From Porpolomopsis calyptriformis (taxonomy: Eukaryota > Basidiomycota > Agaricomycetes > Agaricales > Hygrophoraceae): a stretch of DNA of 64,000 nucleotides. Within the stretch, counting starts at the first letter, position 1; each line of letters begins with the position of its first letter. Made by a program: the position numbers and the translations under genes. The notes below the pieces were generated by a model. It saw only the letters and a list, made by a program, of their open reading frames with translations. It searched no databases and was not told where the DNA came from. Of this stretch, positions 20,072-52,718 are shown one piece after another. Location: positions 620,001-684,000 of the forward strand of contig OX621175.1 of the NCBI GenBank assembly GCA_951640195.1, written 5' to 3'.

Positions 20072-20073
20072 AT

Positions 20074-20193
20074 TTAAGCAATAACGCAGTAGCCGCCTCC
20101 GCCGTTCCCTCCGCCGTCTTGGTCAACGGGTACGGAAACGATGTCGTCCTCAGGGGTGGAGGTGGTGAAGAAGGAGGTGAAGAAGGAATCCAT
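20074..20193 (-). CDS. CaaX lipopeptide pheromone precursor, copy 1 (39 residues, ends CVIA)
   Basis: Single-exon frame of 39 codons. Begins MDSFFTSFFTTSTPEDD and ends GGGGYCVIA. The CVIA tail is a CaaX box for farnesylation and carboxymethylation, identical to that of yeast a-factor and common in basidiomycete mating pheromones. Length, MDSF start, acidic-Val-Pro middle (EDDIVSVPVDQD) and Gly-rich stretch before the Tyr-Cys fit that class. Family knowledge: the precursor is cut internally and the lipidated C-terminal peptide acts on an STE3-type receptor. The cut site is not clear here; a site in the VPVDQD region is a guess. TATAAAAGG lies ~100 bp upstream. Too short for many gene finders. 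Two diverged copies at 29.6 and 52.5 kb support the call. Confidence 0.86.
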   Translation of the reverse strand: MDSFFTSFFTTSTPEDDIVSVPVDQDGGGNGGGGYCVIA

Positions 20194-20294
20194 TTGTAGC
20201 TCGAGAGGATGGGGTTTTGAGTGAAGAGCGAGTTGGATGTGCGGTGGAGTTAGCTGCGTGTGCTGCTGGGAAAAAAAAGAGAGCTGATGGTGGC

Positions 20295-20303
20295 CCTTTT
20301 ATA
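20295..20303 (-). promoter_or_regulatory. TATA box of pheromone gene 1
   Basis: TATAAAAGG on the minus strand within CGTATAAAAGG, about 100 bp before the start codon. The same motif sits at the same distance in both other copies. Confidence 0.75.
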
Positions 20304-20880
20304 CGTGAAAGAGAGCGGAGCATGATAGGAACGATACATACCTCGGACGTTCTAATTGTGTTCAAGCCGAAGGATGGACAGAAACTACCAATGGTTACCG
20401 AGCATGGGATAAAAACAACAATAAGATGATCAGACGCAATTTATGATATGAGACGGTGTGAGACGCAATGTGTGCGACTGTTCGCCGAAAGGTAAGACCG
20501 GTAATACTATCGTCGGGTCATCGTGCCTGATCGGTAAGTTTAAATCAAATTTGTTATTATGACCCGAAAGGCAGATTGTACCGTTCCCCGCATAGTTTCC
20601 AGCGATATTGTTAACAAGAGGAGTGGTACCGCACTCAACGACCTAGTTCATGGGTAGTTAGAAAAATGAAATAAAAGATAAATAAAACGAACGGTTTCAT
20701 CCCAATCTAACCCTCATCATCCTTCATATCCTCGGTGTTTTGTTCGAACGAACAATAAGAGTGGCCGTAATCTGCCACAAATCACGTGATTTAAACAATT
20801 GTCAATAATTTAGAACGCAACCGTTCACTGTCCATTCGATCAGACTTTCCTTATATCCTTTGGTGCCAGGTCCCGACTCC
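20304..20880. other. Upstream flank of pheromone gene 1, shared with copies 2 and 3
   Basis: No coding frame seen. Contains AAATAAAAGATAAATAAAAC-type A-rich sequence near 20665-20690 and the 14-bp perfect palindrome AAATCACGTGATTT at 20779-20792. Related sequence, with the CACGTG core kept, lies upstream of the other two pheromone genes (30238-30243 and 53154-53159). CACGTG is a bHLH-type site; any role in pheromone expression is inference. Confidence 0.5.
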
Positions 20881-20884
20881 AACA

Positions 20885-22590
20885 CATGCTTCATCACCTT
20901 TCCGCTCGCCGTCTTGTGTTCATTCGGCCTCCCTTCCTCTCCGATGAACCAAACCCAGTTCGGCGGATTCGAATCACAATAGCCTCGATCAGCGAATCGC
21001 TACACCTGACGGATGATCATCCTCTCTACACATCCGCGTACTTCTTCTGCCGATATTTGTCTCCCTGGCTGGTGTGAAATCCATGCGCCGACGACTTCCC
21101 CGTATTTGGCCTCGGGCACAGCTGCGGCAGCGGCTTCGCAGATAGCAGTGAGGACGTTTTCGATTTGGACTGGGAATAAGTTCCGAACATAGGAACCAAG
21201 CACATTGGTTGATAAGTGTGTAGTACGAACCTCTCATCTATGCATTAAAAGGACGCCAAAGAGCGAGTGAACACAGGATTGACCTTTACCGACTGGTTTC
21301 AATCGTCAGCATTCTACCAAAACGAAAGTAGGACTTTACTTCTCAAGTAGCCTTCTTCATCCATAATCCCTTCGTCGCCTGTGTACATCTATACCGTTCC
21401 CGATCCATCAGCTCTCATGACTTTTCCAGCCTGCTCTTCGTCGTTCCAGTATCTGCAGACCAGTTCCTTACACAAACGGAGACCGCATACCCTTTCTGAA
21501 CCAAATACCCAGCCACGCAAAGCCCCACCTTGCCTGACGGATCAACAACCTTAGCTCTGACATGATGGGATCCGAAGGGGTCGTTTGGAAAGAGATTGGG
21601 CTATCACGCAAACACATGATTGAGATATTCAAGACAATTTTTCATGTACGTTCCTTTGCTGACCTTGGAACCAGGAGTAAGTCATCAACTTGTTGAATTC
21701 CCAATTCGCGGAACTCATGCCATATCATGGGTGCTTTACATAGAATGTCATTCGGTGTGAGGCGATACATCGACCAGCGGAGAGTGCGTTATTCAAAAGA
21801 TTGTGGTGAGTAAGCTGCACAATTTGATTGTGAATTCATTGTATCCGAGTCTGCCTTGATAGATGACCAAGGACTGACCTTATGAATTGGCGTCATCTTT
21901 GTCGAGGGACCTCATTATTTCGACTTGCAGATGTTTTTCCTTGGTATCCTCTGCCAAAAGCATAAGTTCCCTCCAATCGATCGCGCCCTTCACCTCGAAC
22001 TTGTCTTGCTGTGCCCGAAATTCGCCATTGTCATCCAGAACGACAAGATTGCGAAGTTCAGGCATTCCACTTGGTGGAGAGTTTGGCAGGGAGGGAAATG
22101 CGTCGGAAAGCATGGAGACATAACAAAGGTTCAACAACGAAGAGACGGCAGACTCCGACTAGTTTCAGAGTGTTGAGGCGTAGGCTGCAGAAGTAACACT
22201 CGATGAATAGCACTCCCATAAGCTCGCTAAGACGATAAGTAGGATTGATAGTAGCTAAAATAGCGCCAATGCTTGCGGAAGCCCGCTACAGAGTGGCATA
22301 TGCACTAGACACCGTCCGAAATGGTTCAATAGCCTTCTGTCTTCGCGAAACAAATGGCGTCACCTGTTATTACGATCTCTTTTCGTCACTCCAAGATTCA
22401 GCAATCAGGAGAGCGCGGGCCCCTCAAGCGATTCCTTCCTGCAAATCAGACGAGAGGGATGGGTTCCTTAAGATGACATCCAGAAAATATTCAGGGAGGG
22501 TATGAGGCACCAATGGTCGCCGACTCGGTCAAGAAATGACCGCGGCTGATGTTTCGCATTTTGATGGAAAATGCGAGAGATGGCGTGCCG
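20885..22590 (-). pseudogene. Acyl-CoA synthetase pseudogene (left copy)
   Basis: Degraded relative of the intact gene at 53194-55852. Recognisable pieces in order on the minus strand are the N-terminal exon (22.4-22.6 kb, with deletions), the region around LPELRNLVVLDDNGEF (22.0 kb), the exon with MRLTPND (21.75 kb), the GYGM exon (21.7 kb), and the C-terminal NLFPVQIENVLTAICEAAAA (21.1-21.2 kb). The MRLTPND exon runs straight into the GYGM exon, so about 0.5 kb including three exons of the adenylation core is missing. Frameshifting small deletions occur elsewhere. Cannot encode an active enzyme. Confidence 0.85.
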
Positions 22591-22689
22591 CCGAATGGCC
22601 TGGAGCATGGTGGAGGTCCCGTTCATCACGAAACCTGAGTAAGCGGGCGTGTTATTCTGACAAATGCGACTTGGCGTTTTGGTTTGGAA

Positions 22690-24006
22690 AATGGATTTCC
22701 GTATACGCGATCATGTGATCGTAGCACATCATCCTGGCTCAAATATGCCGGACAAACAACCGAGGGTGTGATGATAAACCCGGATGAACATGACTCACGC
22801 TCGTCCTATGAAGAGGATGTAGTTGGGAAGCTGGGGAACGACGATAGTATTGTGCAAGAAGGTCAGTCCACTCATACAGTTTGTATCCCTTTGAACAAAT
22901 TATTACAGACTTGGAAGCAACCGATGATTTCCCGAAGAATTTTGAAAAGAATCGGATTTGCGTAGACCCTTGCTGCGCCAAGTCTGGGAGGCGAATTTCA
23001 GGTATCTCGGTCGCCCTTCCCATGACCCATACTTATACACCCTCAGCAAATCCTACTATTTAAAGCAACTCCACCAACCACGTCGCTTATCTGAGTCTGC
23101 CCGTCTCTTTGGTTTTAACTGCCTATATGTTTGTACCCCAAACTCACAATTCCTTCCCCCCCCCCCCTCTTGGCTCACTTCCCGTACAGTCTGGTACGTG
23201 GTGCCGCTCGTGTAGCTTCCCATAGCTGCCTACCTTTTCCTTCGCTCCGTCCTTCAATTTGCCGGGCCCCTTCCACGACTTCTCCCCTTCTCCCCCTGTC
23301 TTCCTCCCATAAATTTTCTTTAGCAGATGTCACAAAGACCCTCGTCTGCTTCTTCATGGGAAATATCATCTGGACGATGTTAGAATATCGCTTTTTATTC
23401 CATATTGATGAGCGGCTGCCCGATCGCCCGCTGTTCCTGACTGTGCACTTCTTGTTGCATGGAATACATCACCTCTTGCCCATGGATCGGTACGTCCTCT
23501 TTAATATCTACCCCGAAAATTCCTTTCATCGTCTACTCATGCCAGATTGAGACTGGTGATGCCTCCGTTACTGTTCTGTGCCCTCCAGTATCCATTCACG
23601 CGGTGCAGTATTTCCAATGCCTATCGCAAACGGTATCATTGCGGGCGCATTCACGTTTTGTGCGCCTGTTCCATTTCCAGTGGCAAACGCTTGCTTATTC
23701 ACTTTGATCCGACTGCTCGGTTTAAAGATGTTATATATGATTGCATGCACTATGCGCGGGTAGCCTTCTATTCCCATCCCTTGCCTCTCCAGATTCAACC
23801 TTTGCTCTGATAGGCTCCACCACACGAGCCTACCTAAATGCCTGAAAGAGACGAAGAAATACCATCTCGCGCACCACTACAAAAACTTTGAGCTGGGTTT
23901 TGGCGTTACCAGTTGCGTCTCTTTTCGACCGACGAGACGCACACGTGCACTTTTTCACTCAGGCAAGATTTGGGACGTGGTTTTCAATACCGTCCTCCCA
24001 GTTTAA
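22690..24006 (+). pseudogene. Fatty-acid 2-hydroxylase pseudogene (left copy)
   Basis: Inverted relative of the hydroxylase at 62730-64000. Visible: the end of a cytochrome-b5 domain (LKYAGQTTEGVM, then KLGNDDSIVQE), EATDDFPKNFEKN, the membrane/His-box region GNIIWTMLEYRFLFHIDERL with HFLLHGIHHLLPMD, and the last exons HHYKNFELGFGVT and DVVFNTVLPV. Damage: the cytochrome-b5 heme part is lost, three residues (GFH of the first His box) are deleted in frame near 23392, and an 8-bp deletion near 23605 shifts the frame. Its 3' end directly faces the NACHT-WD40 gene. Confidence 0.82.
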
Positions 24007-24139
24007 GGCCCGTTCAGATACACTTTCGCACAAGAAAATATTTGATTTTCGCAAGATGAGGGTCTGTGTGCACGGTCTCTTTGGCATCTTTGCTCGGTTG
24101 GCCTATGAGCCCACAAAACGAGGGAAGGACTAGAAGCCG

Positions 24140-27100
24140 CTATAGGTTACGAAAATAGATGTCCGTATATCGAAAGTCAAGGACAACGAAACGATTGTCA
24201 CTTGTGACGAATACTACACGATTTGTGTTTGAAGCAAGGAGGACCGGTCTATAAGAGGCCGGAACCCAGCAAATGCGTCGATTCCAAGTAATCGAATGGA
24301 CCCAGCCGTCTTCCGCAATATAACCAAACACCGGACAAGGTTTCGAGTCATCGGAAAACGAGGTCTGGAATAAATCATAAGATCGCGCGACCGATTCAAC
24401 CGAGCTGAAATGTGTTGTGAGGGTCTTCAGATGTGCACCGCTGAGTGTATCCCATACCCGAATAATATTGTCGTCAGATCCAGACACGATACGCGTGCCA
24501 TCGTGGGAGAATGCGACCGATTCTACACAGCTGGAATGTCCCTTGAGAGTATTCAGATCCGCGCCACTGGCTGCATCCCACAGACGAACAGTCTTGTCTT
24601 TGGATCCAGACACGATACACGTGCCATCGGGGGAGAATGCGACCGATTGTACCCAATTGGAATGTCCCTCGAGGGTGTTCAGATGCGCCCCGCTGGTTGC
24701 GTCCCACAGGCGAACAGTCATGTCAAAGGATCCAGACACGATACGCGTGCCATCTGAGGAGAATGCGACCGAATGTACCCAACCGGAATGTCCCTCGAGG
24801 GTGTTCAGATGCACACCGCTGGCTGCGTCCCACAGACGAACAGTCTTGTCAAAGGATCCAGACGCGATACGCGTGCCATCGGGGGAGAATACGACCGATT
24901 GTACCCAATTGGAATGTCCCTCAAGGATGTGCAGATGTGCACCGCCGACTGCGTCCCATAAGCGAACAGTCTTGTCAGAGGATCCAGACACGATACGCGT
25001 GCCATCGGGGGAGAATGCGACGGATTTTACCGAGCTGGAATGTCCTTCGAGGGTGATCAGATGCGCACCGCTGGCTGCGTCCCACAGACGAACATTCTTG
25101 TCAGAGGATCCAGACACGATACGCGCGCCATCGCGGGAGAAGGCAACCGATTGTAGCAACTCGGAATGTCCCTCGAGGGTGTTCAGATGCGCACCGCTGG
25201 CTGCGTCCCACAGACGAACAGTCTTGTCATTGGATCCAGACACGATACGCGTGCCATCGGGGGAGAATGCGACCGATTTTACCGAGTCGAAATGTCCCTC
25301 GAGAGTATTCAGATGTGTACCACTCACTGCATCCCACAGACGAACAGTCTTGTCGTTCGATCCAGACACGATACACGTACCATCTGGGGAGAATGCGGCC
25401 GATTTTACCAACTCGGAATGTCCCTTGAGGGTGTTCAGATGTGCACCACCCACTGCGTCCCATAGACGAACAGTCTTGTCAAAGGATCCAGACACGATAC
25501 GCGTGTCATCTGGGGAGAATGCGGCTGATTTTACCAACTCGGAATGTCCCTCGAGGGTGTTCAGATGCACACCGCTGACCGCGTCCCACAGACGAACAGT
25601 ACTGTCGGTGGATCCAGACACGATACGCGTGCCATCGCGGGAGAATGCGACCGACGCAACTTCACCGGAATGTCCCTCGAGAGTATTCAGATGCGCTCCG
25701 CTGACTGCATCCCACAGACGAACAGTCTTGTCGTCGGATCCAGACACAATACGCGTGCCATCGGGGGAGAATGCGACCGAATTTACCGAGTCGAAATGTC
25801 CCTCGAGAGTATTCAGATGTGCACCACTCACTGCATCCCACAGACGAAAAGTCTTGTCAAAGGATCCAGACACAATACGCATGCCATCTGGGGAGAACGC
25901 AACCGACGCAACCACACCAGAATGTCCTTCCATCGTCCGTAGGCATGAATTCCACCTCTTCTCCAATCCACAGTATATTTTCACAGGAACATCCAGCTCT
26001 CTTGCATATATCTTTTTCACCGAGCTTTCGTGAGGAGTGAACAGTAATGCAGAAAGGTATATTTGAAGTGAGCAACTGCTGATGATCCAGAAAAATTCCC
26101 GGGTAAACCGTTCGCAATCATGAAGTAAATCCTTGGCATCAATCATGGCTTTGTCTGCTTTCTTTGGAATAAGATGAGCATGGTCCATTCGAGTGAGAGA
26201 AGACAACATACAGCAATCGCCTTTTGTGCCGCATCTAATCCAAGCAGGCCATTTCGAAGATCTCCCATCAAACTGAGTGCCTCAAGCCAGTAGAGTAGAT
26301 ATTTCAGGCAAAACTCGTTCACAAGGTCGACAAGAATGTCAGAGAACGTCGAATTTTCTAGGTGCCAATACCAATGACGACATGCATACTGAAGTTCAGG
26401 TCGGATGCAAGTCATGACACGCATCGGCAGGTTGTCTACCTCGGTATTGAGTAACGACGGATTTCTTATTCCACACATATCTCGTTTCAGCTGTTTCATG
26501 GCAGATAGACAAGCACACGAAAGTAATGTGTGCTGCGTCTGAGGGTCAACAACATATTTCGGATTTAGACATCGAGTTGGATTGGTTATAAAGTCGAAAA
26601 ATGATGGATGAAGGGTTCGAATCACTTGCGTGTCATCATCGGGAACCATGATAACCGAATGAAGACGTTGAAGTGTCACTCCCACTGTACGTGATGGCAT
26701 GCCTAGTAATCGTTCAAGAGCAGGTGGCGAAAGAGGATCCCGGAGGAGAATGATCGTGCCCAGAATCATCTTCAGTCGACCAGAAAGATGAGCGGATATG
26801 TTAGGAAATGCATGGTTCAACACTTGGGAGTATAACCGATCAAGGCTATAATGCGGAGACGTGTCTTCCGTTGACGTGGGAGAACCGCATAGAAGACGCA
26901 TAAGTTGGTGTTTCGGGTCAGAATAGTTTGGATCTTCAATGAATCTGATGGAAGTTGACGCGAAGATGAATAGGCCAAAAGACATCTGCGTCAGGGTATG
27001 GATATCTGCTGCGGGGGGCCATTCATGGTCAAGATGATAGAAGGCTCTCGTGAAAACGAGTTTCGTCCGAATGTAGTGTTGGATATCGGCTTGTACGACT

Positions 27101-27956
27101 CCTAATTCCACTTCATGCAAAACGCATCGCCGAGTGACGGGGTTCAAATCAGGGGATTTAAAAACGACGGTAATGTGACTTTCCGGTCGGCTTGTCACCA
27201 AGAACTTCAACGGGAACAGTCCATCGACGTGACGAGAAAGTGATGATAAAATGATAGATGTCGTCCCAGCCTCTTTGCACTCATCAAGTGCATCCAATAC
27301 AACAACACACGGAGGAAACAAGTTTCGGAGGGAGCGAATAGGTTTGATGATAAGCTCTTCAAGTTGATATGAAGGAGTCGTATAGCCAATGTCGCGATTC
27401 GCTTTCATGGCACGAGTAACCTCTGCTCGAAACAAAGGATTGAACATCCCGAGCTGGTAGGCGATCGTCGTAAAGATCAGATTCGGATTGCTGCAACCCG
27501 CATCATCTCGAGAGCAGAAGAAGCTCGCGCCAAGCACACCGTACGCTTTACACACCTCCGCAACGGTGTAAGCAATCGTCGTTTTCCCAGTCCCGGCCGA
27601 TCCGTTGATCCAAAATATACAAGCATCTGCGACAGTATTGCCATCTCTATCCAGAACCGGCTCACGACCAGGTTGTGAATTGCTACTACCAATCCAGCGG
27701 AAAATCTGGTCAAGAATGTCCGTTCTTGTACCCTCTAGGCATCGCGCTCGATCTTTGCAGTTGAAAGGAGAAAATAGGGCATGTGGTGGGTGTTCGTCTG
27801 GAATACCTTGGTCAGTTATATCGCTTTTTGAGAACGCAGTGACAGAAGAAAACCTCGTCACTAGGGCCCCAACTCACCTTGCGGATAGACAAGATAGGTA
27901 TTTTGGTCACGCCCAGCAACGCTGAACGTACTGTCGTGGATCTGGACGCTGGACAT
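24140..27956 (-). CDS. NACHT-WD40 (NLR-like STAND) protein, left copy, 1231 residues
   Basis: Signal-transduction ATPase of the type that mediates non-self recognition in fungi (HET-E/HET-D relatives). Exons 27956-27878, 27806-26212, 26161-24140; GT-AG, phases consistent. The short N-terminus (MSSVQIHDSTFSVAGRDQNT) has no obvious death-effector domain. The NACHT domain starts near residue 85: Walker A NGSAGTGKTTIAYTVAE, Walker B VVVLDALDECKEAG, sensor LVTSRPESH. A helical linker follows, then at least twelve WD40 repeats from about 25.94 to 24.42 kb, each close to EGHSxxVxSVAFSPDGTRIV and DKTVRLWDA, then a degenerate final blade. Repeats are very similar to one another and vary mainly just after GHS. 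Its inverted partner is at 56199-60003. In-frame Met codons upstream of 27956 are possible starts but less likely. Confidence 0.93.
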
Positions 27957-28249
27957 GATGGAAGTGAAGATAATCGATGGTTGGCACAGCCTTGAGGGGC
28001 TCGTCGGAGTTTGAGTCGACGATTGCAGGTACTTGTCTGCTCCCATCCTCCTGGATAACCGGCTTAATAATGGATCAAGCAAGTAGCCCTTGTGCCAGGT
28101 GCGCGCCCACTGATTTGTAGTATATGCTATCTAGAGTACAACGCCGACATTATTGAAAACCTAGAACGCCGTATAAAGCAACACAGGTAACATCATGGAT
28201 GAGAATGAGGATGATGTTCTGACCAGATTCAGCGAGACTTAGAGCATGG
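27957..28249. other. Upstream region of the left NACHT-WD40 gene
   Basis: 293 bp. The bases just before the start codon match the region before the right-hand copy (CCTCAAGGCTGTGCCA versus CTTCAAAGGCTGTGCCA), showing that the duplication included promoter sequence. Nothing else identified. Confidence 0.5.
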
Positions 28250-29270
28250 GATGGCGTTCTCAACTTGTATGCCTGCTCGTTTCTGCGCTCGGGTGGTGCT
28301 AATGCAGCAAGCGGGGTCGTCAACTCCTCATGACGGGACAAACGAAGCAAAAAGACAATGCTAGCGCCGGAGACTTCAAGTTCTTGCACACGTGTAGGGT
28401 TGACCATGACCCATCGGGGTCTGGATCCGGGAGGGCCGCCCGTGATCTACTATTACAATCTGGCTAGTGCGCCAAAACACGAGAATGCTGGGGCGACGAA
28501 GACGGGTCGTGTCCCCCGCGACCACCGCCGGTAAAAAAGCGCAGGACTGACTTAAGATGATCTTCATTTCTTCCTGGGGCCCGGATGTTGGGAAAGGAGC
28601 GTGTGGTTGGCGCAGAGTCAGAGTTATTGTATCCGGGAACGTTCCGCAAGAAAAAGTAAGGGTATACCTAGGGAAAGTGGCAATCGAAAGGAAAGTTTAG
28701 AGAGGACTTGGGAATTTTGCGGACGGTAAATGCACAGGGCGGCATTATTTGGCAGAGCGGGAACTTTAAGCAATGTGTTGATGAGCCTGCAGGGCCAGTC
28801 AGAGAAAGGTGAGAATCAACGGGGATTGAAGCATAAGTTTGAATGGGTGAGCGCGCCGAGTCGGAGTCAGTTGGTGCAGGGCCAGCTAGTTTAGAGAATG
28901 TAGGAGCCACAGGCAAAGGAAAGGCACGAAGCGTGGAGGTTGTTCGGCTCGATTTTGTGTTGCCATTACATGAGCGGAGTGATCGCGGTGACGGGCGTTG
29001 AGCAGGGAAGGCTTTTTAGGATCCAGCGTGCGGAGGGACTGCTTCAGAGCAGCCTTTGGGGTTGCCTCTGCGGTTGTTTCTTGAGGGCTATGTTAGTATT
29101 TGGCCTGTCTACCGAGGATATGATTACTGGATAGAAATTCGTTCGTCCTTTGAGTAGAAGAGCATTGATTTTTGTGACACTCCAAGGGGTAGGAGGAGAG
29201 CATCGTCTGATAGTGGAATGTTAGAGTCAAATCGTCGCAAGTTGAAAACCCGTGATAGGTGGAGCGGGAG
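28250..29270 (-). pseudogene. Broken copy 2 of the unknown-protein gene
   Basis: Collinear with 18.19-19.65 kb but shortened by several deletions. Recognisable pieces include PLAALAPPERRNEQA (28.3 kb), SGASIVFLLRLSRHEELTTP, GRGGHDPSSSPQHSRVLAH (28.5 kb), TTRSFPNIRAPGRNEDHL, LPVAPTFSKLAGPAPTDSDS (28.87 kb). Stops and frameshifts separate them. Sits downstream of pheromone gene 2, as copy 1 does. Confidence 0.82.
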
Positions 29271-29569
29271 TAAGTTGACCCCCGCTGATTCTCAGGCCGT
29301 ACACAAAATACACGCGTGCCAACATTGGAATTAAAATGTGGAAAGAAATGAATACAACAATGTTGGAGCGAGTGAGAACGAAGCGAATAAAATACTAAAA
29401 TGCTCTCTACACAAAAGGTGGTAAAGTTGCATAATCGAATCCGTGCGGTCGTGGTGGAGATGGGATGGTGGATGTGTATCAATGCTAGTCCTGGAGAAGC
29501 GATTGTGAGAAGAGTCCGAGGGACCGAGTTGACCCGATCTACTCACATTTATGGGTTGGGTTGGGGTAT

Positions 29570-29689
29570 TTAAGCAATAATGCAGTAGCCTTTTCCGCCG
29601 CCGCCTCCGGTCTCTTGGTCAAACGGTACGGAAATGATGTCGTCCTCAGGGGTGGAGGTGGTGAAAAAGAAGGTGAAGAAGGAATCCAT
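29570..29689 (-). CDS. CaaX pheromone precursor, copy 2 (39 residues, ends CIIA)
   Basis: Same length and layout as copy 1: MDSFFTFFFTTSTPEDD start, IISVPFDQETGGGGG middle, KGYCIIA end. CIIA is also a valid CaaX box. Compared with copy 3, ten of 120 nucleotides differ and eight of these change the protein, with most changes in the C-terminal third that would form the mature peptide. Single exon; TATA box 91-99 bp upstream. Confidence 0.86.
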   Translation of the reverse strand: MDSFFTFFFTTSTPEDDIISVPFDQETGGGGGKGYCIIA

Positions 29690-29779
29690 TTGTAGCTCGA
29701 GAGGATGGGTTCTGAGTGAAGAGCGAGTGGGATGTGTGGTGTGGTTAGCTGTGTGCGCTGCTGGAAGGCGGATGGTAAC

Positions 29780-29788
29780 CCTTTTATA
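29780..29788 (-). promoter_or_regulatory. TATA box of pheromone gene 2
   Basis: TATAAAAGG on the minus strand, in the context GACGTATAAAAGG, at the same spacing as in copies 1 and 3. Confidence 0.75.
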
Positions 29789-30492
29789 CGTCAAAGACAA
29801 CGGAGGATGGGGATACATACCTAATTGTGTTCAGGCTGAAGGATCAACAAAACTTGTTAACGGCCACCGAGCATGGGATAAAAAACAATAAACAGGTGAT
29901 GAGCGTCCAATAATGACGAGAATAAAAAACAGGGAGAGTGTTTACCGAAGGGTAAGACGTGAAATACTAACGAGAGGCGTGTCGCATGTGTCTGGCCGAT
30001 AAGTTTAAACCATTGTCCAGAGAACCCGATTCGCTCCCTGCATAGTTCCGAGCGATATTAACCAGAGTGTTCATACCGCACCGCACTCAACCGCCTAGTT
30101 TATGCAATGATTAACAATTGAAATAAAAGATAAATAAAACGGACGGTTTATCCCATTCCCTCATCACTAATGGACTCCGGAATTCATCGGTGTCTTCATC
30201 GGCGTCCAGTTGGAACAATAACAAATTCGTCACAAGTCACGTGTGCAAACGTTACATGGCAACAAGCCAGTGTTGGAACTTAATTTCATTTCAGTGAAAC
30301 TGGCAAAGCTTTGGTGTGATTTCGCCGACACTTGTTTCGAAGCAAAACTACAGTCGTCACCCTCTTAACCCATACCCTTTGGTCACAGCCCTAGACTATG
30401 GGTTATCAGAGAGTATGGCTTTCAAGGGTGTTGCTAAAAATAGATCCCAAAATCCAATTAAAATTTTTGTACTGTATTTTGAGCATCCTCGA
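29789..30492. other. Upstream flank of pheromone gene 2 and unexplained sequence
   Basis: To about 30255 this is the duplicated pheromone upstream flank with CACGTG at 30238-30243. From there to 30492 I see no gene; it would be the 3' untranslated part of the transposase-like fragment that follows. Confidence 0.45.
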
Positions 30493-30756
30493 CTATTTAC
30501 AACTAAAGTAGTCAGTGAGATGAGTAGGAGCCATAGAATGAGACTCCTCCAAATGCATTTGATGCCCAAAAGAGGCTAAAATTACCTCTAGCTTCTGTGC
30601 AAAGGGATCATTCATGCTGTCAATGTACCTGTTAATCACTGATGCTGCCTCCAGTACTTCACAACATATAGGGCAAGCTTCAATGAATGCATCATCGTCA
30701 ATATCATCATCCCCACCATTGATTGGCCCCTCTTTTTGTGCCTGTTGTGCATCCAA
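30493..30756 (-). pseudogene. C-terminal fragment of a transposase-like protein (pogo/DDE type suspected)
   Basis: An 87-codon frame ending EVILASFGHQMHLEESH and THLTDYFSCK. The pattern (acidic stretch, RYIDSMNDPFAQKLE, SFGH, TDYF at the end) resembles the C-termini of pogo/Tigger-like DDE proteins in mushrooms; this is recall, not a search. Its upstream part ends at the left LTR of the first retroelement (target duplication ATCCAA at 30751-30756), and does not obviously resume at 45109. Confidence 0.4.
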
Positions 30757-31123
30757 TACTGTTACAATACGTCCCTTTTTCTTTCTTTATCTTATCTTAT
30801 CACAACCTTCCTTGTCCCATCTTCTTTCCTTATTGTTTTCCCCTTGTTATCTGTGACCCGTGACTGTGACTGTCACACACGAGGGACTTCTGCCATTGGT
30901 CGGTGAAGATGTCATCTGCAGTTGCACAGCAGCTGAGTCAGCCATTCCATGGATTGTTGTTGAGTCATAGAATTCAAACTCAGAGTAGATAAGTAGCATA
31001 GTCAAAGTTTGTATTCCTTAGTTTCGACCTCAACAAAGACACCTCCCTCTAACCTTTGGTTGGAGTCTCTGCTCTTTCTATTGACTATCCCTAAGCCGAC
31101 CAGGAGACTACTGCGCCTTAATA
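30757..31123 (+). repeat. Left LTR of chromovirus 1
   Basis: 367 bp, matches 44719-45108 except for an extra ~20 bp in the right copy (near 44835-44855) and scattered substitutions, nearly all transitions. Starts TACTGTTAC where the right copy has TGATATTAT. Confidence 0.9.
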
Positions 31124-31345
31124 GAAGGTTGAAACTCCTCCTCCCCCTCTGCTTCTCTTCGCAAAAGCCTCTGGACAAGATTCGTCTGACATTGCCCATC
31201 TTTCTTAAGACCGTTGTTGTTGCCTTGGAATCCCAACTCAGGCTCCCCCTGCAAGGCCAACCTCTTTTGATTGGAAAACCACAGGTGACTCTGACATCCC
31301 CGCACAGTATCTAATTCGACCACCACCCTGGCTTCGCGCTCTCCA

Positions 31346-40438: not shown

Positions 40439-40525
40439 TGGATCTGGTGATGGTGAAGGTGAAGGTGTTGTTAAAGGTGAAGAAGATCGAGTAGGGGGGA
40501 GAGAGCAAGAAGGAAGTCTGATTCT

Positions 40526-40915
40526 TGTTATAAACTGGATATTGTCGAGATGGTTTTACTTCGGAGTGCTCTATCCCAAGACGTTGATAAGATCTCAAGT
40601 CCTAGTTATTAGGTTGTCTAACAAGGAATCAGACTTAAAGTCTGAGTACGACTAACTAGGAGTTTATATACTGACTACGCTACTGTGGATAAGTCAGTGT
40701 AAACATGAGGAATACATGCGACAAGTAGAGATAAGCATGATAGAAGACTCAGAGCATGTGAAAAGATGAAACATGATTGTTGGAAATGAAATGTGTCTTA
40801 TCTAGGATATATGAAAAGATACGAGACTGTGGGGAATCCCAAGCAAAGATAAGACCTATCCAACTAAGCAGTAATAACTAACATAGAGAGGAAATGAAAA
40901 TTTATGTCCATAACA
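40526..40915 (-). repeat. LTR of chromovirus 2 (high-coordinate copy, 5' end of the element)
   Basis: 390 bp partner of 33774-34163; followed by target duplication CCTCC at 40916-40920. Confidence 0.93.
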
Positions 40916-43900: not shown

Positions 43901-44718
43901 CCTTCAAGGTCATTGAGAAAATTAGTCATTCAGCTTACCAACTTGAACTCCCCCATGAATGGATGGGCTTACACCCAGTCTTCAATGAATCCTATTTGTC
44001 TCCCTACCATCATTCCTCTTTCCCGAACCAAAAAGCTCCCCCTCCTCCCCCTCCTCTCCAGCTGGATGGTGAAACCGAATATGTCATCGAGAAAATCTTG
44101 GATTCCCGAATCCACTGAAAGCAGCTCCAATACCTAGTGCACTGGGAGGGTTACACCAATGAAGAGAACACTTGGCAGTCCACGTCCAATGTTGCACATG
44201 CCCAAGAATTGGTTGACGAGTTCCACACTCTGAACCTGAAATGACCAGGTCTAAGACTTCACATCCATGTTATTCATATGGACAACTTCTTCAGCATTGA
44301 TGATCGCCTCTATGATCCAGTCACTGACTCATACAGTGAAGGTTACAAACCACCAATGAAGTCTGGCAACATCGACATCATCATTCCACTCACACCTATT
44401 GAGGTTGACCGCATCCTGGATTCTGACTTCAATGCTTCTGTTCTCTTCCCTCATCTCCCCTCTTATGTATGACAAGTCTGGATCTACAAGGAAGGTCCAG
44501 TCAATGCAGTCACTCTCATTGTGCGATTGGACAATCACAGCTAAGTGCTTCACACATACCAACTCACACTCCCTCTTTCGGCCTTGGATATCTAGCAATG
44601 ATACGGTCATTACCTCCCTGTCATCCCTTGTTATGCTCCCCACTAGCTCCTATGAGACTGCTCAAGACATCTCCAATGTCTACGTTAGCCTTGCGCAGAC
44701 ACGATTCTGAGAAGAGAG

Positions 44719-45108
44719 TGATATTATGATACATCCCTTTTTCTTTCTTTATCTTATCTTATCACGACCTTCCTTGTCCCCTCTTCTTTCCTTATCATTT
44801 TCCCCTTGTTATCTGTGACCCATGACTGTGACTGTCACCCAACCAGTCAAGTGACTGTTACACATGAGGGACTTCTGCCATTGGTCAGTGAAGATGTCAT
44901 CCACAGTTGCGCAGCGGCTGAGTCAGCTATTCCATGGATTGTTGTTGAGTCATAGAATTCAAACTCAGAGTAGATAAGTAGCATAGTCAAAGTTTGTATT
45001 CCTTAGTTTCAACCTCAACAAAGACACCTCCCTCTAACCTTTGGTTGGAGTCTCTGCTCTTTCCGTTGACTATCCCTAAGCCAACTGGGAGACCACTGCG
45101 CCTTAACA
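44719..45108 (+). repeat. Right LTR of chromovirus 1
   Basis: 390 bp, TGATATTATG to CTTAACA, so the canonical TG...CA ends are kept here. Followed by the target duplication ATCCAA. Confidence 0.9.
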
Positions 45109-46652
45109 ATCCAACAATATTCCAATCCTGTAAATGGGGAGAGAACTTGCATGCTCATATAGAGCATGATGAATTGCTGATAGTAGCGATTCGCAGAGGA
45201 TACATATCTGATGGATTATTCAGCAAGGTTCTTGAAAACCCTGATCACCATAAGGCGTTCACTGTCTGTGAAGGCCTGATTTAGTCTAAGAATTTGGGGG
45301 GAGAGGAAGTATTATGTATCCCATCTGCAAAGATGGGACAAGAATCAATTTTCAGCCTGATCATTGATCAAGCACACTCAATAGTAGGCCATTTTGGTCC
45401 ACAATGTACCACCGACTACATAAGACAATGGTACTAGTGGCTAAAGATATTTAGCCATGTTAAACAATTCTGCAAGTTGTGTCAGACTTGTCAAATGTTG
45501 AAAGACGATATGCAGCACCTGATAGGACTGTTGCATTCATTACCCATACCCACAAAACTGTGGCAATCAATTGGAATGGACTTTATTGGTCTGTTTCCCA
45601 AAATTAACTGGTACAATTACCTATGGGTAGTCATTTGTCAAATGACATCAATGATCCACCTAATTCTGGTGAATACCAAAATGAAAGTGTCAGAGCTTTC
45701 ATGGATCTACTTAAAAGAAGTAGTAAGGCTACATGGCCTTCCTGAAAGTATAGTCTCAGACAGAGACTTGAAATTTACCTCCAAATAGTGGAGCAAACTT
45801 CATAGGCTCTTAGGAGCTAAACTATTGATGTCCACATCTTTCCATCCTCAAATGGATGGTGCAACCAAATGAGCTAATCATTCAATAGGTCAAATCCTCC
45901 AAGCGACCATAAGCTTGGATCAACGAGACTGGATCACAAAGATCCTGATGACCAAATTCATGATTAACGCAAGTATCAGTGAAGCTACAGGCTTCACCCT
46001 GTTCGAGCTGAATGGAGCATATATGCCTGCTATGATTAAGCAGGTAGAAAATACCACTGAGACACTACCAGGTGTCCAAGCATTTGCTCAACAAGTGCTG
46101 CAGAATCTGGCAGCTGCTTATGATGTGATCATTGCACATCGCGTATTTCAAAGACACTACACTAATCAGCGTAGAAGGGAAGAACCGTTGATAAAAGTAA
46201 ACAACTTTGTATATCTATTGACCAAGAACCTTAAACTATGGCAAGGTAGAGCAGGGAAACTACTGCCAAGGTTCATTGGGCCGTACAAAGTCATATGGGC
46301 CTTTCCTAATGAATCCAACTATGAGTTGGAACTCCCCAATGAGCTCACAAAGTGACGGATTCATCTGTGCTTTCACATAAATTTGCTGCGTCCGCACCAT
46401 CCAAATGATGATGCGTTGTTCCCTAACCGAGTGTCAGTACACGCTTATGACTTCGGTGAACCACTTCAAACTGAATGGTTAGTTGATGAAATAGTCAGCC
46501 ATAGGTGGAACAACTGAAAACTCAAGCTGGAGGTTCATTGGAACCTTGGAGACACAACATGGGAGCCCATCTCATCATGTAAAGAGCTTAGTGCTCTAGA
46601 TAAGTACCTAACCCTAATGGGTGTAGATACCCCTTATCAACTGCCGAGATAG
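45109..46652 (+). pseudogene. Integrase-chromodomain remnant of Ty3/gypsy element 3
   Basis: Begins abruptly after the ATCCAA duplication with the end of RNase H or the spacer (IEHDELLIVAIRRGYISDGL), then the zinc-binding region (SIVGHFGPQCTTDYIRQWY, FCKLCQTCQMLK), the integrase core (IGMDFIGLFPKINWYNYLWV, HGLPESIVSDRDLKFTSK) and a chromodomain-like end (WLVDEIVSHRWNN-stop-KLKLEVHW). Several TGA and TAG stops. Gag, protease and reverse transcriptase are missing, so the element was truncated before or when chromovirus 1 inserted. Confidence 0.85.
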
Positions 46653-46885
46653 CCAGTTAAGAGGCACTGAATGCCGACTGCACTCAGAGCCTTGAGGCAT
46701 GCCAACAAGCACACCTTGTATGCGCGCTAAACTGAGCGCAACTGATAATTGCCTTAATCAGCAATCAATGGACCGGACATACCTGGTCCAGTGGTGGACT
46801 CACCCCAATTGAGGTAATTAGAGGCACCAGAATGATGCCACAAGTCTAAGTGTGACTTGTATAAAAGCACAATAAACAAAAAACA
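46653..46885. other. Spacer between integrase remnant and downstream frame
   Basis: 233 bp, no frame. Contains TATAAAAGC near 46859-46867 ahead of the next frame, so it may hold a promoter or internal untranslated region of element 3. Confidence 0.4.
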
Positions 46886-47089
46886 ATGGTAGAATATTTT
46901 CTACCCCATACAACTATGTCAAACAAAAGCAACATGCCCACAAGCGTAAGAACAAGCCCCCACCCCATAGACCTGAGACTACCAGAAATGGTGGAAGACA
47001 ATGGGGATCAGCTAATGGCTGGTCCTGACAAAGTCATCAGATCCCCATGCCAGACACAGCATGGGCCCTCTTCTGAAGGGGTGTCACAA
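46886..47089 (+). pseudogene. Start of a downstream frame of element 3
   Basis: Frame with MVEYFLPHTTMSNKSN to PSSEGVSQ. I read it as the front of the decayed frame that resumes at 48836, with the 47.09-48.83 kb segment inserted between. Supported by shared strand and the sudden change of content, not by a clear target duplication. Confidence 0.4.
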
Positions 47090-47744
47090 CTGTAGTTGCA
47101 AGTCTTTTCATTGATCACAAGACAGGCTTTGGAGCTTAATAGGTCTAGTAGGATATACAAGAAGGTTCTGACAGGAACGTCTTCGTAAAGGGTAATAATT
47201 CCTTCTGAGTTGAGTTGGACTTCTATGAAGAAGTTATTCTGTGGGTTGAATCTGTTGCGTGCCTCTGCTGAGAGTTTAGGGAATATGGGCATGAACAGTT
47301 GGCTCAATAGTTGTGGGGTTATGTTTCTCTTTTCTTGTTCTGATGGAAAAGAAGTCTGATGTTTCTGATTGCATTCGTGCTACTACAAGTAATCTCACAG
47401 GAGGACAAAGTGATGATCCGCTTTGCCCTCAGGGTTTATATAGTATTTCTAAAATAGGAGTCACTATGAGTCAGCCTCCGCAGTCACCCCATTTTCTATT
47501 GTTCACAGCCTCCAGTTTAAGGTTTGCCATTGTTCCTAGTCATACTGCGGAAGGCTGTGTGCTTCTGTTGACTCAATTCTATTGGGCACTACCTTCCGCA
47601 GCATTAGGCTGTGTTGTCTCATGACTGGTTCCTATTGTTCTTCTGGTCATGAGATTGCCGTTGTTTCTATCTCTTGTCCAGCATATTGGGTTTCTCTTCT
47701 TTGACTGAGGAAGCTCCTTTTGGTCCTTCCTTTGTGTCTGGGCA

Positions 47745-47752
47745 TATAAAAG
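47745..47752 (+). promoter_or_regulatory. TATA box of the inserted gene
   Basis: TATAAAAG 47 bp before the start codon at 47799, followed by a short pyrimidine-containing leader. Confidence 0.65.
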
Positions 47753-47798
47753 GCATGGGTTATATCCCTATGCTTCAGTTTGATCCTCATCAATCATC

Positions 47799-48631
47799 AT
47801 GACTCCCTCCCACCAAGGCTACTACATCCGATTCTTCAAGCAGTCCAGAGTGGTGCACTACACTGCTCCTGTCTTTCTCGATTGTGATTCATTTCACTAC
47901 TACCTCCAGCGCATCCCCTCCAACACTGACCTCTGTTGGTCTTCCTTCTCCTGCTTTGCTTGCAGTGGCAAGCACAAAGTCAAGAAGTGTCTGTTTGTTC
48001 GCTGGCCAATCCAGCATGCTTGTGGCTTGATGGAGGATCTGCTTGGTGAGTACTTTGTTTTGTCTTTATTAGTCTGTGTTTGTTGATAATAGGCTTTCCC
48101 TTTCTTAGCTTGGGATGATGACGCCCCTCCCCCTACTTCCCAGCTTCCTTTGGAGGAGCAGGTTAATTGGGGGTCCAACAAGTGGGCTGACTCTCTTCCT
48201 TCTGTAAGGAAGGAGGCAGTTGACTGGGCTGCCAGTCCCCCCTTCCATCCTTGGACCCCTAGTCCATTAAGTCCTTTATCTGGTGGTAATGCTCTCAACT
48301 CTCTCGCTCTCTTTGCAATCACTAATCTCTTATCTTTTTAGTTGAAGCTTTGTCCTTGTCGTCGACTAATGTTAATGTCAAGATTGAGGAAGAAGAAGTT
48401 CCTCTTAGTTTGTTGTGGAGTCCTACCAATGATTGGTTGGGTGAAGAGGCAAGGAAGATTGCAATGGGTTTTGTCGAGGGGAAGGCTGCTGAATTGCAGG
48501 CTTCTGGTGGAGACACCAATGGGGCAATCTATTGGGGTAATAAGTTGGCCACATTAGATGGTCAAGTAGTATTGAGTTTCATAGAGTTCTTGAGGGATAG
48601 CATAGTGCAGGAGATTGCTAAGATGGACTAG
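47799..48631 (+). CDS. Unknown 237-residue protein with a small Cys-His cluster
   Basis: Exons 47799-48045, 48109-48285, 48342-48631; GT-AG introns of 63 and 56 nt, total 714 nt with exact phase, no internal stop. I do not recognise the family. Residues 45-85 hold CWSSFSCFACSGKHKVKKC, including C-x2-C-x3-H-x4-C, which could bind zinc; the spacing is one short of a retroviral knuckle. The middle is Trp/Pro-rich (GSNKWADS, PFHPWTPSPLSPLSG). The C-terminal ~95 residues look helical and acidic (KIEEEEVPLSLLWSPTNDWL, LSFIEFLRDSIVQEIAKMD). All surrounding transposon frames are riddled with stops, so this gene arrived later or is under selection. Splice donor 48283 is an alternative to 48286. Confidence 0.65.
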
Positions 48632-48835
48632 TCTAAATAGTTAGTTGGACATGGACTTCCCCTTTTGTACAAATAGTTTCTGCTGCCAATAAAGACAGCC
48701 CCTCCTCTAAAGAGAACAGGCATAGAAAAGCAAGGAAAAGAACAGAATTTTAAGAGGGTGAATGCCAATTTCATGACAAGGGGAGAGAGAGCACTGCTCT
48801 TGACAAAACACAAGTAACTTGTCAGAGTTACCCCC

Positions 48836-51045
48836 AAAAACATGGGTGTGTAACAGCACCATCAATGTTGCGATACACTCCAGTCACCAGAGGTGTAAAG
48901 TCTGCAAAGACTATGTAATGCATGTTATCAAAGACAGCATATATGAAGATGCCTCATTGAAAGAGGCATTTGAGGACTGCCGCAAGGCACACCAAGAGGA
49001 ACTCATCACAGAGATCCGAAACCTAACCGTCTCACTCGAGAAGGCTCAAGATGATGGTGACTACTATCACGCATGTTATGAATAAACTCAAGATGAGCTC
49101 TATAAAGCCAATCAGCTTATAGCTGAGCTGAATAAGTCTAACGACGCTAGCCACGCCGAATCGCTAGGAAAGCGCAAGCACTCCTGTACTGAGAGATCAC
49201 ATTCACGATCGTCAGAATACACAAGGGCAGCCAGCCCTGTGACCAAGACTTCCTCTGCCCAAGACAAGGGCAAGGGAAAGGAAACCAACAAGGAGGCTCA
49301 ATGAAGAGCCGATATGGAACACTTCGATCTGTACTTGGATGACGAGTTAGCAGGCTGTGGCCCGATGTTCGAAAACCTCAACAAGGAGGATAACACATTG
49401 ATATGACTGGGCTGGGCCTGAGCCCTCCAGAAGTGCAAGTTCAGAGGGAATGTGGTGGTTGCATACAAAGGCTTCTTCTCTCATTACATGTCACATCTAC
49501 TGTAACTAGTCACTATCAACATTAACACATACAAATCATGAATCAGAGTCCAAAGGACCAATGGGTTGTATCAGCGTACATCAAGAGATGCTTCCCCCAA
49601 CTCATTTGAGAGAATGAGGAACTGAAGGCTCACCTTCATCCCAACTCATATGTTGAGTTCCCAAACCTCCCAGATCTGGGAGTGAATAATCAATCTGGCC
49701 CTAGTGGTGAGATGATCAAACAGCGCAAGAAGTGCTCAACTATTACTGCTTGGCCCAGCATCCCTACTGGGGCCCATTACTCACCTATTGACCAGACCAT
49801 CCAGGTTGGCGCAAGCGCTGAAGCAGTGCAACGAAACGAAGCATTGGGATTACCCCCTCCATGTGGAACTTGATCTGCGGATGACCGCAGATACCCAGTC
49901 AATGCGCACCAATAGCGCACTCTGTTCATTCAAGCCCAAGAATCAGGCAATAATGAGGCTCTCGAACTTGCGCAATCGTTCATCACAACAGCGCAGGCAA
50001 CTCCTTAAGAGAGTAGAATGGATGCTCAATGCATTGTGTTAATCAATTGGAGAGTTCCCACCTGGGCTTCAGGTGATTCCACCAATGCACCTGTACAGGT
50101 TCCAACTTCTTCTGTACCTGGACGGATTAACCAGTCTCAGCCAACCGCCATGAGCTCCCTAGAAGAGTGGGCTCATTGGTTTTACATAAACTGCTGTGCC
50201 ACACACCCTGGAGTGTGCTTGGAATGAGATGGCAGCATTTCGCTGCGAAGCCTCTGCAGGATGCTTTTGGTTAGTTGACACAAACCAAAGTTGCCCAAGA
50301 CCCGTGCTCCTGCCAGATCATTGACAGACGCTGACCAGATACGGTCGCAATACATTAGAGCAGTGGCCCTCTTGTTTGGAATGCCTGGCCACTATCGCTC
50401 ACTTGTGATGGGATCGAACCTGTCCATTGCGGAACCTCCCAGAGAACCAGCCTAGTACTCTAGATCACCTAATGTCACAGAACAATCCCTCGTTCCATTC
50501 TTCGCTAGACAAGGCGTTACATTGAACAGGTGGATGATGCCTTTGTCTATGCCTTTCAATGGCTCAAGGACACCCTCCAGGGTAATGTCTCAGACTTATC
50601 CTCCCTTGAGATGTACAGAGAGTCTGTGCGTAATACATTAGCAAGGAATAGCACTCTGTCATCACTTCGTGATGGAAATGACACATGGTTCCTAGACAGA
50701 TGTCCCCGCCGATGTCCCCCATCTCGTATCTCATCCAATGATGAGTCTGTTGCCCCATCCACAGGCCTGATCACCCAAGATGCATTTGATGCATCTAACT
50801 TGTTCACTCGGCATGGACAAATCACATACACGCTCGCCGAGCATGGACCACCTCATGGCTGGGACTCATCCCGCACTTCGCGATGCCATTCACAGTGCGA
50901 TTCGCAAGACAGCGCTGCGCCGCTAGGCAGCAATAGTGAGCAAGTATCACTTGGCTTGCCAATCCCCGAACCTGAGCCAGCTTCGCTTCAGGAATGTATT
51001 GATAGTATGTCAGAGCTACCTGACGTCCTGATGGACTATGGATGA
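48836..51045 (+). pseudogene. Decayed long frame downstream of the integrase of element 3
   Basis: Pieces in several frames: KRCKVCKDYV-like start near 48.88 kb, a charged helical region (LITEIRNLTVSLEKAQDDGD), Arg/Ser-rich KRKHSCTERSHSRSSEY, a conserved-looking HFDLYLDDELAGCGPMF, ITAWPSIPTGAHYSPI, EEWAHWFYINCCATHP and the last open piece 50530-51045 ending MSELPDVLMDYG. TGA, TAA and TAG interrupt it. Position between integrase and the LTR would make it a 3' reading frame of the element; family unknown to me. Confidence 0.5.
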
Positions 51046-51191
51046 ATGTAGTCATTGCTGCAGTTGTATTACTACGGTGTTTATTTTCTGTTTCTCTTAG
51101 TCCTTTCTATGTAATATATAGATTGTTTTGTATGTATTCTGCCTGGCTATCAGGCTTAACTTACCCCAGCAGTTAAGCCAAAGGGGGAGGA

Positions 51192-51854
51192 TGTAACAGA
51201 TATGTTACATACAGCCACTGCGCTGTGTTTGTACATATTTGTACTGGATACCTTAAGTACCAGTTACGCTTAGGTAAACAATAAGTTTACATCCCACTCC
51301 CGCTTATACCAGATTGCCCCAATACATTGGTTCTGTGCATATCCTGGTATTGAGCAAAGTGTGATAACTTATCCCCAACCCTTACAACATCCCATTAGTT
51401 ATCATACCATGTATTCACAAGTATGGGAATGTCAGCGGCTGCTGACTACAGTTACAATGATTCATTAAGAATCCAAAGTACTATTATTAACACAGGATTC
51501 CCCAGTTGTCCAACTCTGGACCATCCTGTTATCATAGGGTATTGAAGCTAGCATTCAGGCATGAAGTCCATAACATGCTGCCAACTCCACAATGCTTTAC
51601 CAACTGGTTACCAAGATTGTGGGGGTATTACCTGCTCACCCAAGGTAGGAATAATTTGTTTAGAGTTTACATCTATCACCCAGCAATCTGGACTTATTGC
51701 ACTTTTGCTGATGTAATTCTGTCTTTATTGCTTACAAAGCCTTAGCTCTATTTGTAGCATAAAGCTTCCATCTAACGCCACGCCACGTCACAAGTCCTAC
51801 TGTTCACCTTGCTCACATTGCCACGACCTCCAACCCGAGTCGTATATATTAACA
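51192..51854 (+). repeat. Probable right LTR of element 3
   Basis: Preceded by the polypurine tract AAAGGGGGAGGA (51180-51191) and starting TGTAACAGATATGTTACA; ends at TATATTAACA where similarity to the pheromone-module flank begins. About 660 bp, no coding frame. The matching left LTR is not in the window, so ends are inferred from the polypurine tract and the flank. Confidence 0.6.
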
Positions 51855-52230
51855 AAGGAAAGGCACGAAGCGTGGAGGTTGTTCGGCTGGATTTTGCGTT
51901 GCTATTACATGAGCGGAGTGGTCGCGGTGACGGGGTTGAGCGGGGGGGCTTTTTAGGATCCAGCGTGAGGAGGGACTGCTTCAGAGCAGCCTTTGGGGTT
52001 GCCTCTGCGGTTGTTTCTTGAGGGCTATGTTAGTATTTGGCCTGTCTACCGAGGATATGATTACTGGATAGAAATTCGTTCGTCCTTTGAGTAGAAGAGC
52101 ATTGATTTTTGTGATACTCCAAGGGATAGGATGGAGGAGAGCATGCGGAATGTTGGAGTCAAATCGTCGCAAGTTGAAAACCCGTGATAGGTGGAGCGGG
52201 AGTAAGTTGACCCCCGCTGATTCTCAGGCC
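51855..52230 (-). pseudogene. Truncated copy 3 of the unknown-protein gene
   Basis: Only the N-terminal coding part remains, itself broken, ending at the retrotransposon border. Matches the 28915-29270 part of copy 2 closely and the 19.2-19.7 kb part of the intact gene less closely. Confidence 0.8.
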
Positions 52231-52498
52231 GTACACAAAATACACGCGTGCCAACATTGGAATTAAAATGTGGAAAGAATGAATACAACAATGTCGGAGC
52301 GAGTGAGAACGAATCGAATAAAATACTAAAATGCACTCTACACAAAAGGTGGTAAAGTTGCATAATCGAATCCGTGCGGTCGTGGTGGAGATGGGATGGT
52401 GGATGTGTATCAATGCTAGTCCTGGAGAAGCGATTGTGAGAAGAGTCCGAGGGACCGAGTTGACCCGATCTACTCACATAGATGGGTTGGGTTGGGGT

Positions 52499-52618
52499 TT
52501 AAGCAATAACGCAGTAGCCGCTTCCGCCGTTGCCTCCGGTGTCTTGGTCAACGGGTACGGAAATGATGTCGTCCTCAGGGGTGGATGTGGTGATAAAGAA
52601 GGTGAAGAAGGAATCCAT
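52499..52618 (-). CDS. CaaX pheromone precursor, copy 3 (39 residues, ends CVIA)
   Basis: MDSFFTFFITTSTPEDD start, IISVPVDQDTGGNGG middle, SGYCVIA end. Same length and CaaX box as copy 1, but the surrounding DNA is nearer to copy 2. No intron, no stop. TATA box 101-109 bp upstream. Expected to be farnesylated and exported like other fungal lipopeptide pheromones; that is family knowledge, not shown here. Confidence 0.86.
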   Translation of the reverse strand: MDSFFTFFITTSTPEDDIISVPVDQDTGGNGGSGYCVIA

Positions 52619-52718
52619 TTGTAGCTCGAGAGGATGGGTTCCGAGGGAAGAGTGAGTGGGATGTGTGGTGTGGTTAGCTGCGTGCGCTGCTGGGAAAAGA
52701 TGGAAGGCGGATGGTAAC

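What the first reader, a model, noticed from the sequence alone, without database searches (positions are those of the whole stretch)
20074..52618. Three CaaX lipopeptide pheromone precursor genes in one 33-kb stretch
Frames at 20074-20193, 29570-29689 and 52499-52618 (all minus) encode 39-residue peptides starting MDSFFT and ending YCVIA, YCIIA and YCVIA, each with a TATAAAAGG box ~100 bp upstream. This is the layout of basidiomycete mating pheromone precursors. A multi-copy pheromone cluster embedded in transposons would be either part of a B mating-type (pheromone/receptor) locus or a pheromone family outside it. Such short genes are commonly missed by annotation.
Basis: partly seen in the sequence, partly recalled or inferred. 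Interest (0 to 1): 0.85.

Follow-up and report, generated by a model that had tools for sequence, protein, structure and literature searches.

The report
Dispersed pheromone-like peptide genes, mushroom
Three tiny duplicated genes for fat-tailed signalling peptides sit in a repeat-rich stretch of a mushroom chromosome, far from the mating-type genes, and so look like the known but poorly understood side branch of mushroom pheromones that does not decide mating type.

Summary
Three 39-codon frames (minus strand) start MDSFFT, end YC[VI]IA, and have TATAAAAGGG 99-110 bp upstream. Searches of the 33.5-Mb host genome find only these three copies, plus two distant relatives on contigs C8 and C14 with the same layout. 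The nearest of 27 STE3-like receptor loci is 533 kb from copy C; the mip-HD locus is on C2; no precursor was seen in the stretches read around the receptors. So this is not a B mating-type locus. The Gly-rich predicted peptides and the scattered arrangement match the non-mating pheromone-like genes reported for Agaricus bisporus (PMC8305134). Copies B and C are a recent duplication (671 of 690 flank sites alike), yet B carries 8 private changes in the CDS, all in its C-terminal half. Evidence for selective maintenance is moderate: the CDS of copy A is far better conserved than its upstream flank, but no better than its 3' flank. Expression, processing, receptor and function are untested. New member of a known kind.

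The parts
20074..20193 (-). copy A: 39-aa lipopeptide precursor, CVIA
20294..20303 (-). TATAAAAGGG box of copy A, starting 110 bp upstream of the ATG
29570..29689 (-). copy B: 39-aa lipopeptide precursor, CIIA; C-terminal half divergent
29779..29788 (-). TATAAAAGGG box of copy B, starting 99 bp upstream of the ATG
   Evidence: position computed from the distance
52499..52618 (-). copy C: 39-aa lipopeptide precursor, CVIA
52718..52727 (-). TATAAAAGGG box of copy C, starting 109 bp upstream of the ATG
   Evidence: position computed from the distance
28914..30244 (.). duplicated segment holding copy B (91% to 51853-53160, gaps counted)
51853..53160 (.). duplicated segment holding copy C
19776..22617 (.). 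older duplicated segment holding copy A, collinear in pieces (73-83%) with 52251-55861
24105..27959 (-). NACHT-WD40 gene beside the cluster, inverted duplicate (85%) of 56196-60028; neighbour, not part of the pheromone genes
56196..60028 (+). NACHT-WD40 gene, the other inverted copy; neighbour

Best explanation
The three frames are real genes for farnesylated peptide signals of the 'non-mating-type pheromone-like' class of mushrooms. Inferred route: a TATA-driven short transcript gives a 39-aa precursor; the CaaX cysteine is farnesylated, the last three residues are removed and the new end is carboxymethylated; the N-terminal part is cut off near the acidic D-Q-D/E site about 10 residues before the cysteine; a Gly-rich peptide of about 10-12 residues ending in YC is exported and sensed by STE3-type receptors encoded elsewhere. 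They lie outside both mating-type regions, so they most likely serve self-signalling, fruiting or growth rather than mating-type discrimination. Segmental duplication made the three copies, and copy B has since changed in the half that holds the processing site and the signal. Shown here: frames, promoter boxes, copy number, distance to receptors, conservation pattern. Inferred: processing, export, receptor, function.
For: Frames and boxes. PF08015 Fungal mating-type pheromone is the only Pfam family matched (16.4, 19.3, 20.5 bits; cut-off 22). Two unlinked relatives, C8:219717-219860 (47 aa) and C14:520459-520575 (38 aa), share MD-x-F, YCVIA and GTATAAAA. All 51 stop-ended C[VIM][VIM]A sites among 70 in the genome were read (52 read in all): 5 are precursors. 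Copy A against C: 9 of 120 CDS sites differ, 85 of 262 upstream (P=4e-8), with no indel in the CDS and 11 upstream. 27 STE3-like loci, none in the window, nearest 533 kb from copy C. mip beside HD on C2. Same arrangement and Gly-rich peptides in A. bisporus (PMC8305134).
Against: All three stay under the Pfam cut-off; the family search of the genome sees only copies B and C, at 16.6 and 13.4 bits (E 0.55 and 5.4), and not A; the C8 relative has no Pfam match. The processing site DQD/DQE is not one of the dipeptides listed in PMC8305134. No homologue in the protein database (word-based, weak for so short a query). The CDS is not better conserved than the 3' flank (A-C 25 of 239, P=0.45) nor clearly than the promoter stretch (20 of 130, P=0.07), and dN/dS does not depart from its null. 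Gene conversion could explain the conserved block. No transcript data.
Confidence: 0.68

Rival explanations
1. They are the mating-specific pheromones of this species, physically unlinked from the receptors; a modified system with the ligand determinant on C13.
For: They are three of only five precursors found; no pheromone frame was found beside the mating-like receptors on C3 and C5.
Against: Ligand and receptor genes that set mating type usually share one locus in mushrooms (PMC8686365, PMC8305134). Gly-rich, mutually similar peptides are the pattern reported for the non-mating class (PMC8305134; PMC4101180 passages). Gaps in my search: tails such as CTIS, present in Hypsizygus (PMC8686365), were not searched genome-wide, and only about 4-15 kb on either side of the receptors was read.
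Confidence: 0.15
2. They are relics of duplication: frames preserved by chance or by gene conversion, not expressed.
For: Copies sit in a repeat-rich duplicated region; dN/dS does not depart from the null, and a chance stop would be absent in 76-85% of null runs per pair; the CDS is no better conserved than the 3' flank.
Against: Promoter box, CDS and 3' flank are conserved together while the upstream flank of copy A has drifted, and the CDS has no indel in any pair; unlinked relatives on C8 and C14 keep the same layout.
Confidence: 0.13
3. The frames encode some other short prenylated peptide, not a signal sensed by STE3 receptors.
For: Pfam scores below cut-off; function untested.
Against: MD-x-F start, acidic residue near -10 and CaaX end follow the mushroom pheromone layout as described in PMC8305134, PMC8686365 and PMC4101180.
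Confidence: 0.04

Closest known systems
Agaricus bisporus pheromone-like precursors (PMC8305134: passages, sections 12 and 15 whole, section 19 part 1 of 2 read)
   Same: Four short CaaX precursors with Gly-rich mature peptides; [quoted passage not shown] scattered away from the STE3 genes and only loosely linked to MAT; judged without mating-type function.
   Different: Agaricus precursors are 44-54 aa and the island about 270 kb (centromere); here 39 aa, a retrotransposon-like stretch of some 14-20 kb between B and C, copies in segmental duplications, and 27 rather than 4 STE3-like loci.
Non-mating pheromone-like peptides of Coprinopsis cinerea and Laccaria bicolor (consensus GGGSGNGAYC and GGGSGNNAYC, as printed in PMC8305134)
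   Same: Gly-rich ten-residue peptide ending in YC; the last ten residues of copy A's predicted peptide share 7 and 6 of 10.
   Different: Copies B and C share only 5 of 10; the original papers were not read.
Pycnoporus cinnabarinus precursors (PMC4101180, passages read)
   Same: Seven precursors of 39-65 aa with CaaX end and MD-type start; four mutually similar ones read as resembling non-mating-type peptides.
   Different: Genomic arrangement not given in the passages seen.
P/R (MAT-B) pheromone genes, e.g. Hypsizygus marmoreus PHB1-3 (PMC8686365, passages and section 16 read)
   Same: CVIA tail (two of three), acidic residue about 10 positions before the CaaX box.
   Different: Those lie within a 22-kb locus with STE3 receptors; here the nearest receptor is 533 kb away.

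Membership tests
Basidiomycete lipopeptide pheromone precursors | short precursor, MD-x-F start, C-terminal CaaX | tested here: met
Basidiomycete lipopeptide pheromone precursors | acidic or charged processing site 10-13 residues before the CaaX cysteine | tested here: inconclusive
   D, E, D at position -10 within DQD/DQE; not one of the dipeptides listed in PMC8305134
Basidiomycete lipopeptide pheromone precursors | PF08015 match | tested here: inconclusive
   only family matched, 16.4-20.5 bits, curated cut-off 22 not reached; genome search sees B and C weakly, A not. A short, divergent family, so I do not treat the cut-off as defining
Basidiomycete lipopeptide pheromone precursors | farnesylation, secretion, receptor activation | not testable with these tools
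   needs mass spectrometry and a reporter assay
B (P/R) mating-type locus | STE3 receptor gene next to the pheromone genes | tested here: not met
   27 STE3-like loci, nearest at C13:1205190, 533 kb from copy C
B (P/R) mating-type locus | allelic difference between compatible strains | not testable with these tools
   one genome held
Non-mating-type pheromone-like precursors | Gly-rich mature peptides ending YC, several mutually similar copies | tested here: met
   comparison with consensus in PMC8305134. Holds for the window triplet; the C8 and C14 relatives are less Gly-rich
Non-mating-type pheromone-like precursors | location outside the P/R and HD loci | tested here: met
Non-mating-type pheromone-like precursors | no role in mating-type discrimination | not testable with these tools
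   needs crosses

The most novel reading that the evidence does not exclude
A private self-signalling system has expanded on one chromosome: a triplicated, diversifying set of Gly-rich lipopeptides on C13 acts on the array of 17 STE3-like receptor loci on the same contig (1205-1322 kb), with copy B evolving a new ligand specificity.
Probability: 0.12. Interest if true: 0.75.

Novelty: new member of a known kind. Interest (0 to 1): 0.4.

Why it matters
Mushroom STE3-like receptors outside the mating locus are orphans: the S. commune study proposes self-pheromones as possible ligands (PMC8161036, abstract and section 4.4 read). A genome with many such receptors and only five candidate ligands found, three of them near-identical and one visibly diverging in its C-terminal half, is a tractable place to pair orphan receptors with ligands and to ask what these signals do.

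Tried and rejected
B-locus reading: rejected, because no receptor lies near and none of 30 CaaX-like frames in the 20 fetched 10-kb stretches around or beside the STE3 loci starts MD-x-F (frames across a join between stretches would be missed there). A looser re-scan of 30 kb at the C3 and C5 receptors found no precursor; one MD-x-F frame on C5 has no CaaX end.

Purifying selection by dN/dS: not shown; ratios 1.06, 0.59, 1.17 and null probabilities 0.62, 0.43, 0.75. A first CDS-against-flank test (A-C 9/120 against 135/461) ran past the 3' end of the homology; redone within it, the CDS stands out against the upstream flank only.

Protein homologues: none for copy C extended by three upstream in-frame residues nor for the C8 relative; the C14 relative finds only itself in the genome. 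NCBIfam and PDB searches gave nothing meaningful.

Further tails: 79 C[TA][VIM]A-(TRR) sites, fewer than the control's 100. 35 were read and none is an MD-x-F precursor; only 155 bases upstream were fetched for 34 of them, so a longer precursor could be missed where the frame stays open. 39 unread sites end in TGG, 5 read C[TA]MA. For the C[VIM][VIM]A pattern: 70 sites, control 42; the 18 unread ones end in TGG, which is no stop. Tails not ending in A were not searched genome-wide.

Species: not identified. The TFIIF-beta frame of the window has as best hits bearing an organism name Tricholoma matsutake (64%), Hypsizygus marmoreus (64%) and Lyophyllum atratum (56%), and an unnamed metagenome hit at 73% (best 120 of 421 listed); so an agaric, perhaps near Tricholomatineae.

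Literature: MDSFFT, YCVIA and YCIIA as word starts occur in no paper of the held library. Other searches.

Full report
What is there. The three frames stand as described. Each has 39 codons, starts MDSFFT, ends in YCVIA or YCIIA, and has TATAAAAGGG beginning 110, 99 and 109 bp before the ATG. No frame of the kind MD-x-F...CaaX arose in 100 Markov simulations of the window, against 3 seen. The only Pfam match is PF08015 Fungal mating-type pheromone, under its cut-off in all three; searched over the genome, that family sees copies B and C weakly and copy A not at all.

Genome context. The host genome (33,544,692 bases, 17 contigs, unnamed) can be searched; the window is C13:620001-684000. DNA and protein searches find only these three copies (the tool calls such counts lower bounds). 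The STE3 family search gives 87 exon-level matches, which I grouped into 27 loci: 17 on C13 between 1205 and 1322 kb, five on C3, two on C10, one each on C5, C6 and C12. A tree of 25 of the 27 (two fragments left out) sets four rows (three at C3:2454-2465 kb, one on C5) against 21 others; the tool warns that long branches meet at that split and that one of the four, C3:2457287, is itself a long branch. Calling these four mating-like is my reading of their sequence, recalled, not a test against named receptors. Two homeobox matches were found; the one on C2 (2461652-2461771) lies 1.3 kb from a Peptidase_M3 (mip-like) gene, the usual HD layout (PMC8305134), while the one on C10 is 570 kb from the other Peptidase_M3 gene. 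Of three PBD-domain matches the second best, C3:2501338, lies within 50 kb of the C3 receptors, somewhat as CLA4 lies near MAT-B in Sanghuangporus (PMC8537844, passages); the best is on C5, 767 kb from the C5 receptor, and which of them is CLA4 was not settled. On this reading the window's genes are unlinked to both mating-type regions.

Other precursors. Of 70 sites matching a C[VIM][VIM]A end, 52 were read, among them all 51 that end in a stop: five are precursors, namely the three window copies and one each on C8 and C14. The two new ones, 47 and 38 aa, share 10 invariant columns with the window copies, including M, D, F, Y, C, I and A, and carry TATAAAA boxes at -95 and -71. None of the five lies in the stretches read around the receptors, and no MD-x-F CaaX frame was found there.

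How the copies arose. Copies B and C lie in a 1.3-kb duplicate at 91%; copy A belongs to an older duplicate collinear in pieces with C at 73-83%. NACHT-WD40 genes nearby are an inverted pair at 85%. Retrotransposon-like sequence, low in GC (0.43-0.47 from 30 to 50 kb), lies between B and C.

Selection. Within the stretch where A is homologous to B and C (about -400 to +360 from the ATG), A against C differs at 9 of 120 CDS sites, 85 of 262 upstream (P=4e-8), 20 of 130 in the promoter stretch (P=0.07) and 25 of 239 downstream (P=0.45); A against B at 15 of 120, 90 of 292 (P=6e-5), 16 of 120 (P=1) and 24 of 239 (P=0.48). The CDS has no indel in any pair; the upstream flank has 11 and 9. So a block from the promoter to past the gene is conserved, which fits a transcription unit, but the CDS is not singled out within it, and conversion could give the same. 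dN/dS is uninformative. B against C is the reverse: 10 of 120 in the CDS, 19 of 690 in flanks (P=0.006). With A as outgroup, 8 of the 10 are on the B branch, all between offsets 65 and 108 of the CDS, against 6 of about 690 in flanks (P=3e-4; the last 60 flank sites have no homologous A and no B-C change). I chose that contrast after seeing the data. Seven of the eight change residues, at codons 23, 26, 30, 33 and 37; of these only 30 and 33 lie inside the predicted ten-residue peptide, 26 is at the processing site and 37 in the part that is cut off. Divergence of the ligand under selection, or conversion from an unseen paralogue, both fit.

What it is. Agaricus bisporus has four such precursors, three flanking a transposon island and one on another chromosome, Gly-rich, scattered from the receptors and judged without mating-type function (PMC8305134). 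Copy A's predicted decapeptide matches the C. cinerea consensus printed there at 7 of 10, B and C at 5. I therefore file the triplet under non-mating-type pheromone-like precursors. That the scattering points to a bipolar species is likely by analogy but not tested.

Noticed in passing
G000 C13:1205190-1322040 (L015-L023): Seventeen STE3-like receptor loci on one contig, 16 of them within 62 kb, part of 27 in the genome; several show stops in the exon-level reading and two are fragments.
   Followed up: partly
L037:318-461 (+) and L038:160-276 (-): Two further, dispersed pheromone-type precursors (47 and 38 aa, both ending LLYCVIA) on contigs C8 and C14.
   Followed up: yes
window 24105-27959 and 56196-60028: Inverted pair of NACHT-WD40 genes with a 126-bp WD40 unit repeated about 12 times each.
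   Followed up: partly
window 60283-62409: Crinkler N-terminal domain frame next to a protein-kinase-like frame (kinase match just under its cut-off), possibly one gene.
   Followed up: no
window 18268-19709: Two adjacent long minus frames without Pfam match beside copy A, fragments of which remain beside copy B.
   Followed up: no
window 20025-20073: A poly-C run two bases after the stop of copy A, followed by a TGGGT tandem repeat; B and C have only a short AACCC run there.
   Followed up: no
window 22834-24103 and 62627-63998: A second inverted duplicate (83%), next to the NACHT-WD40 pair; the frame 62997-63581 in it has no Pfam match.
   Followed up: no
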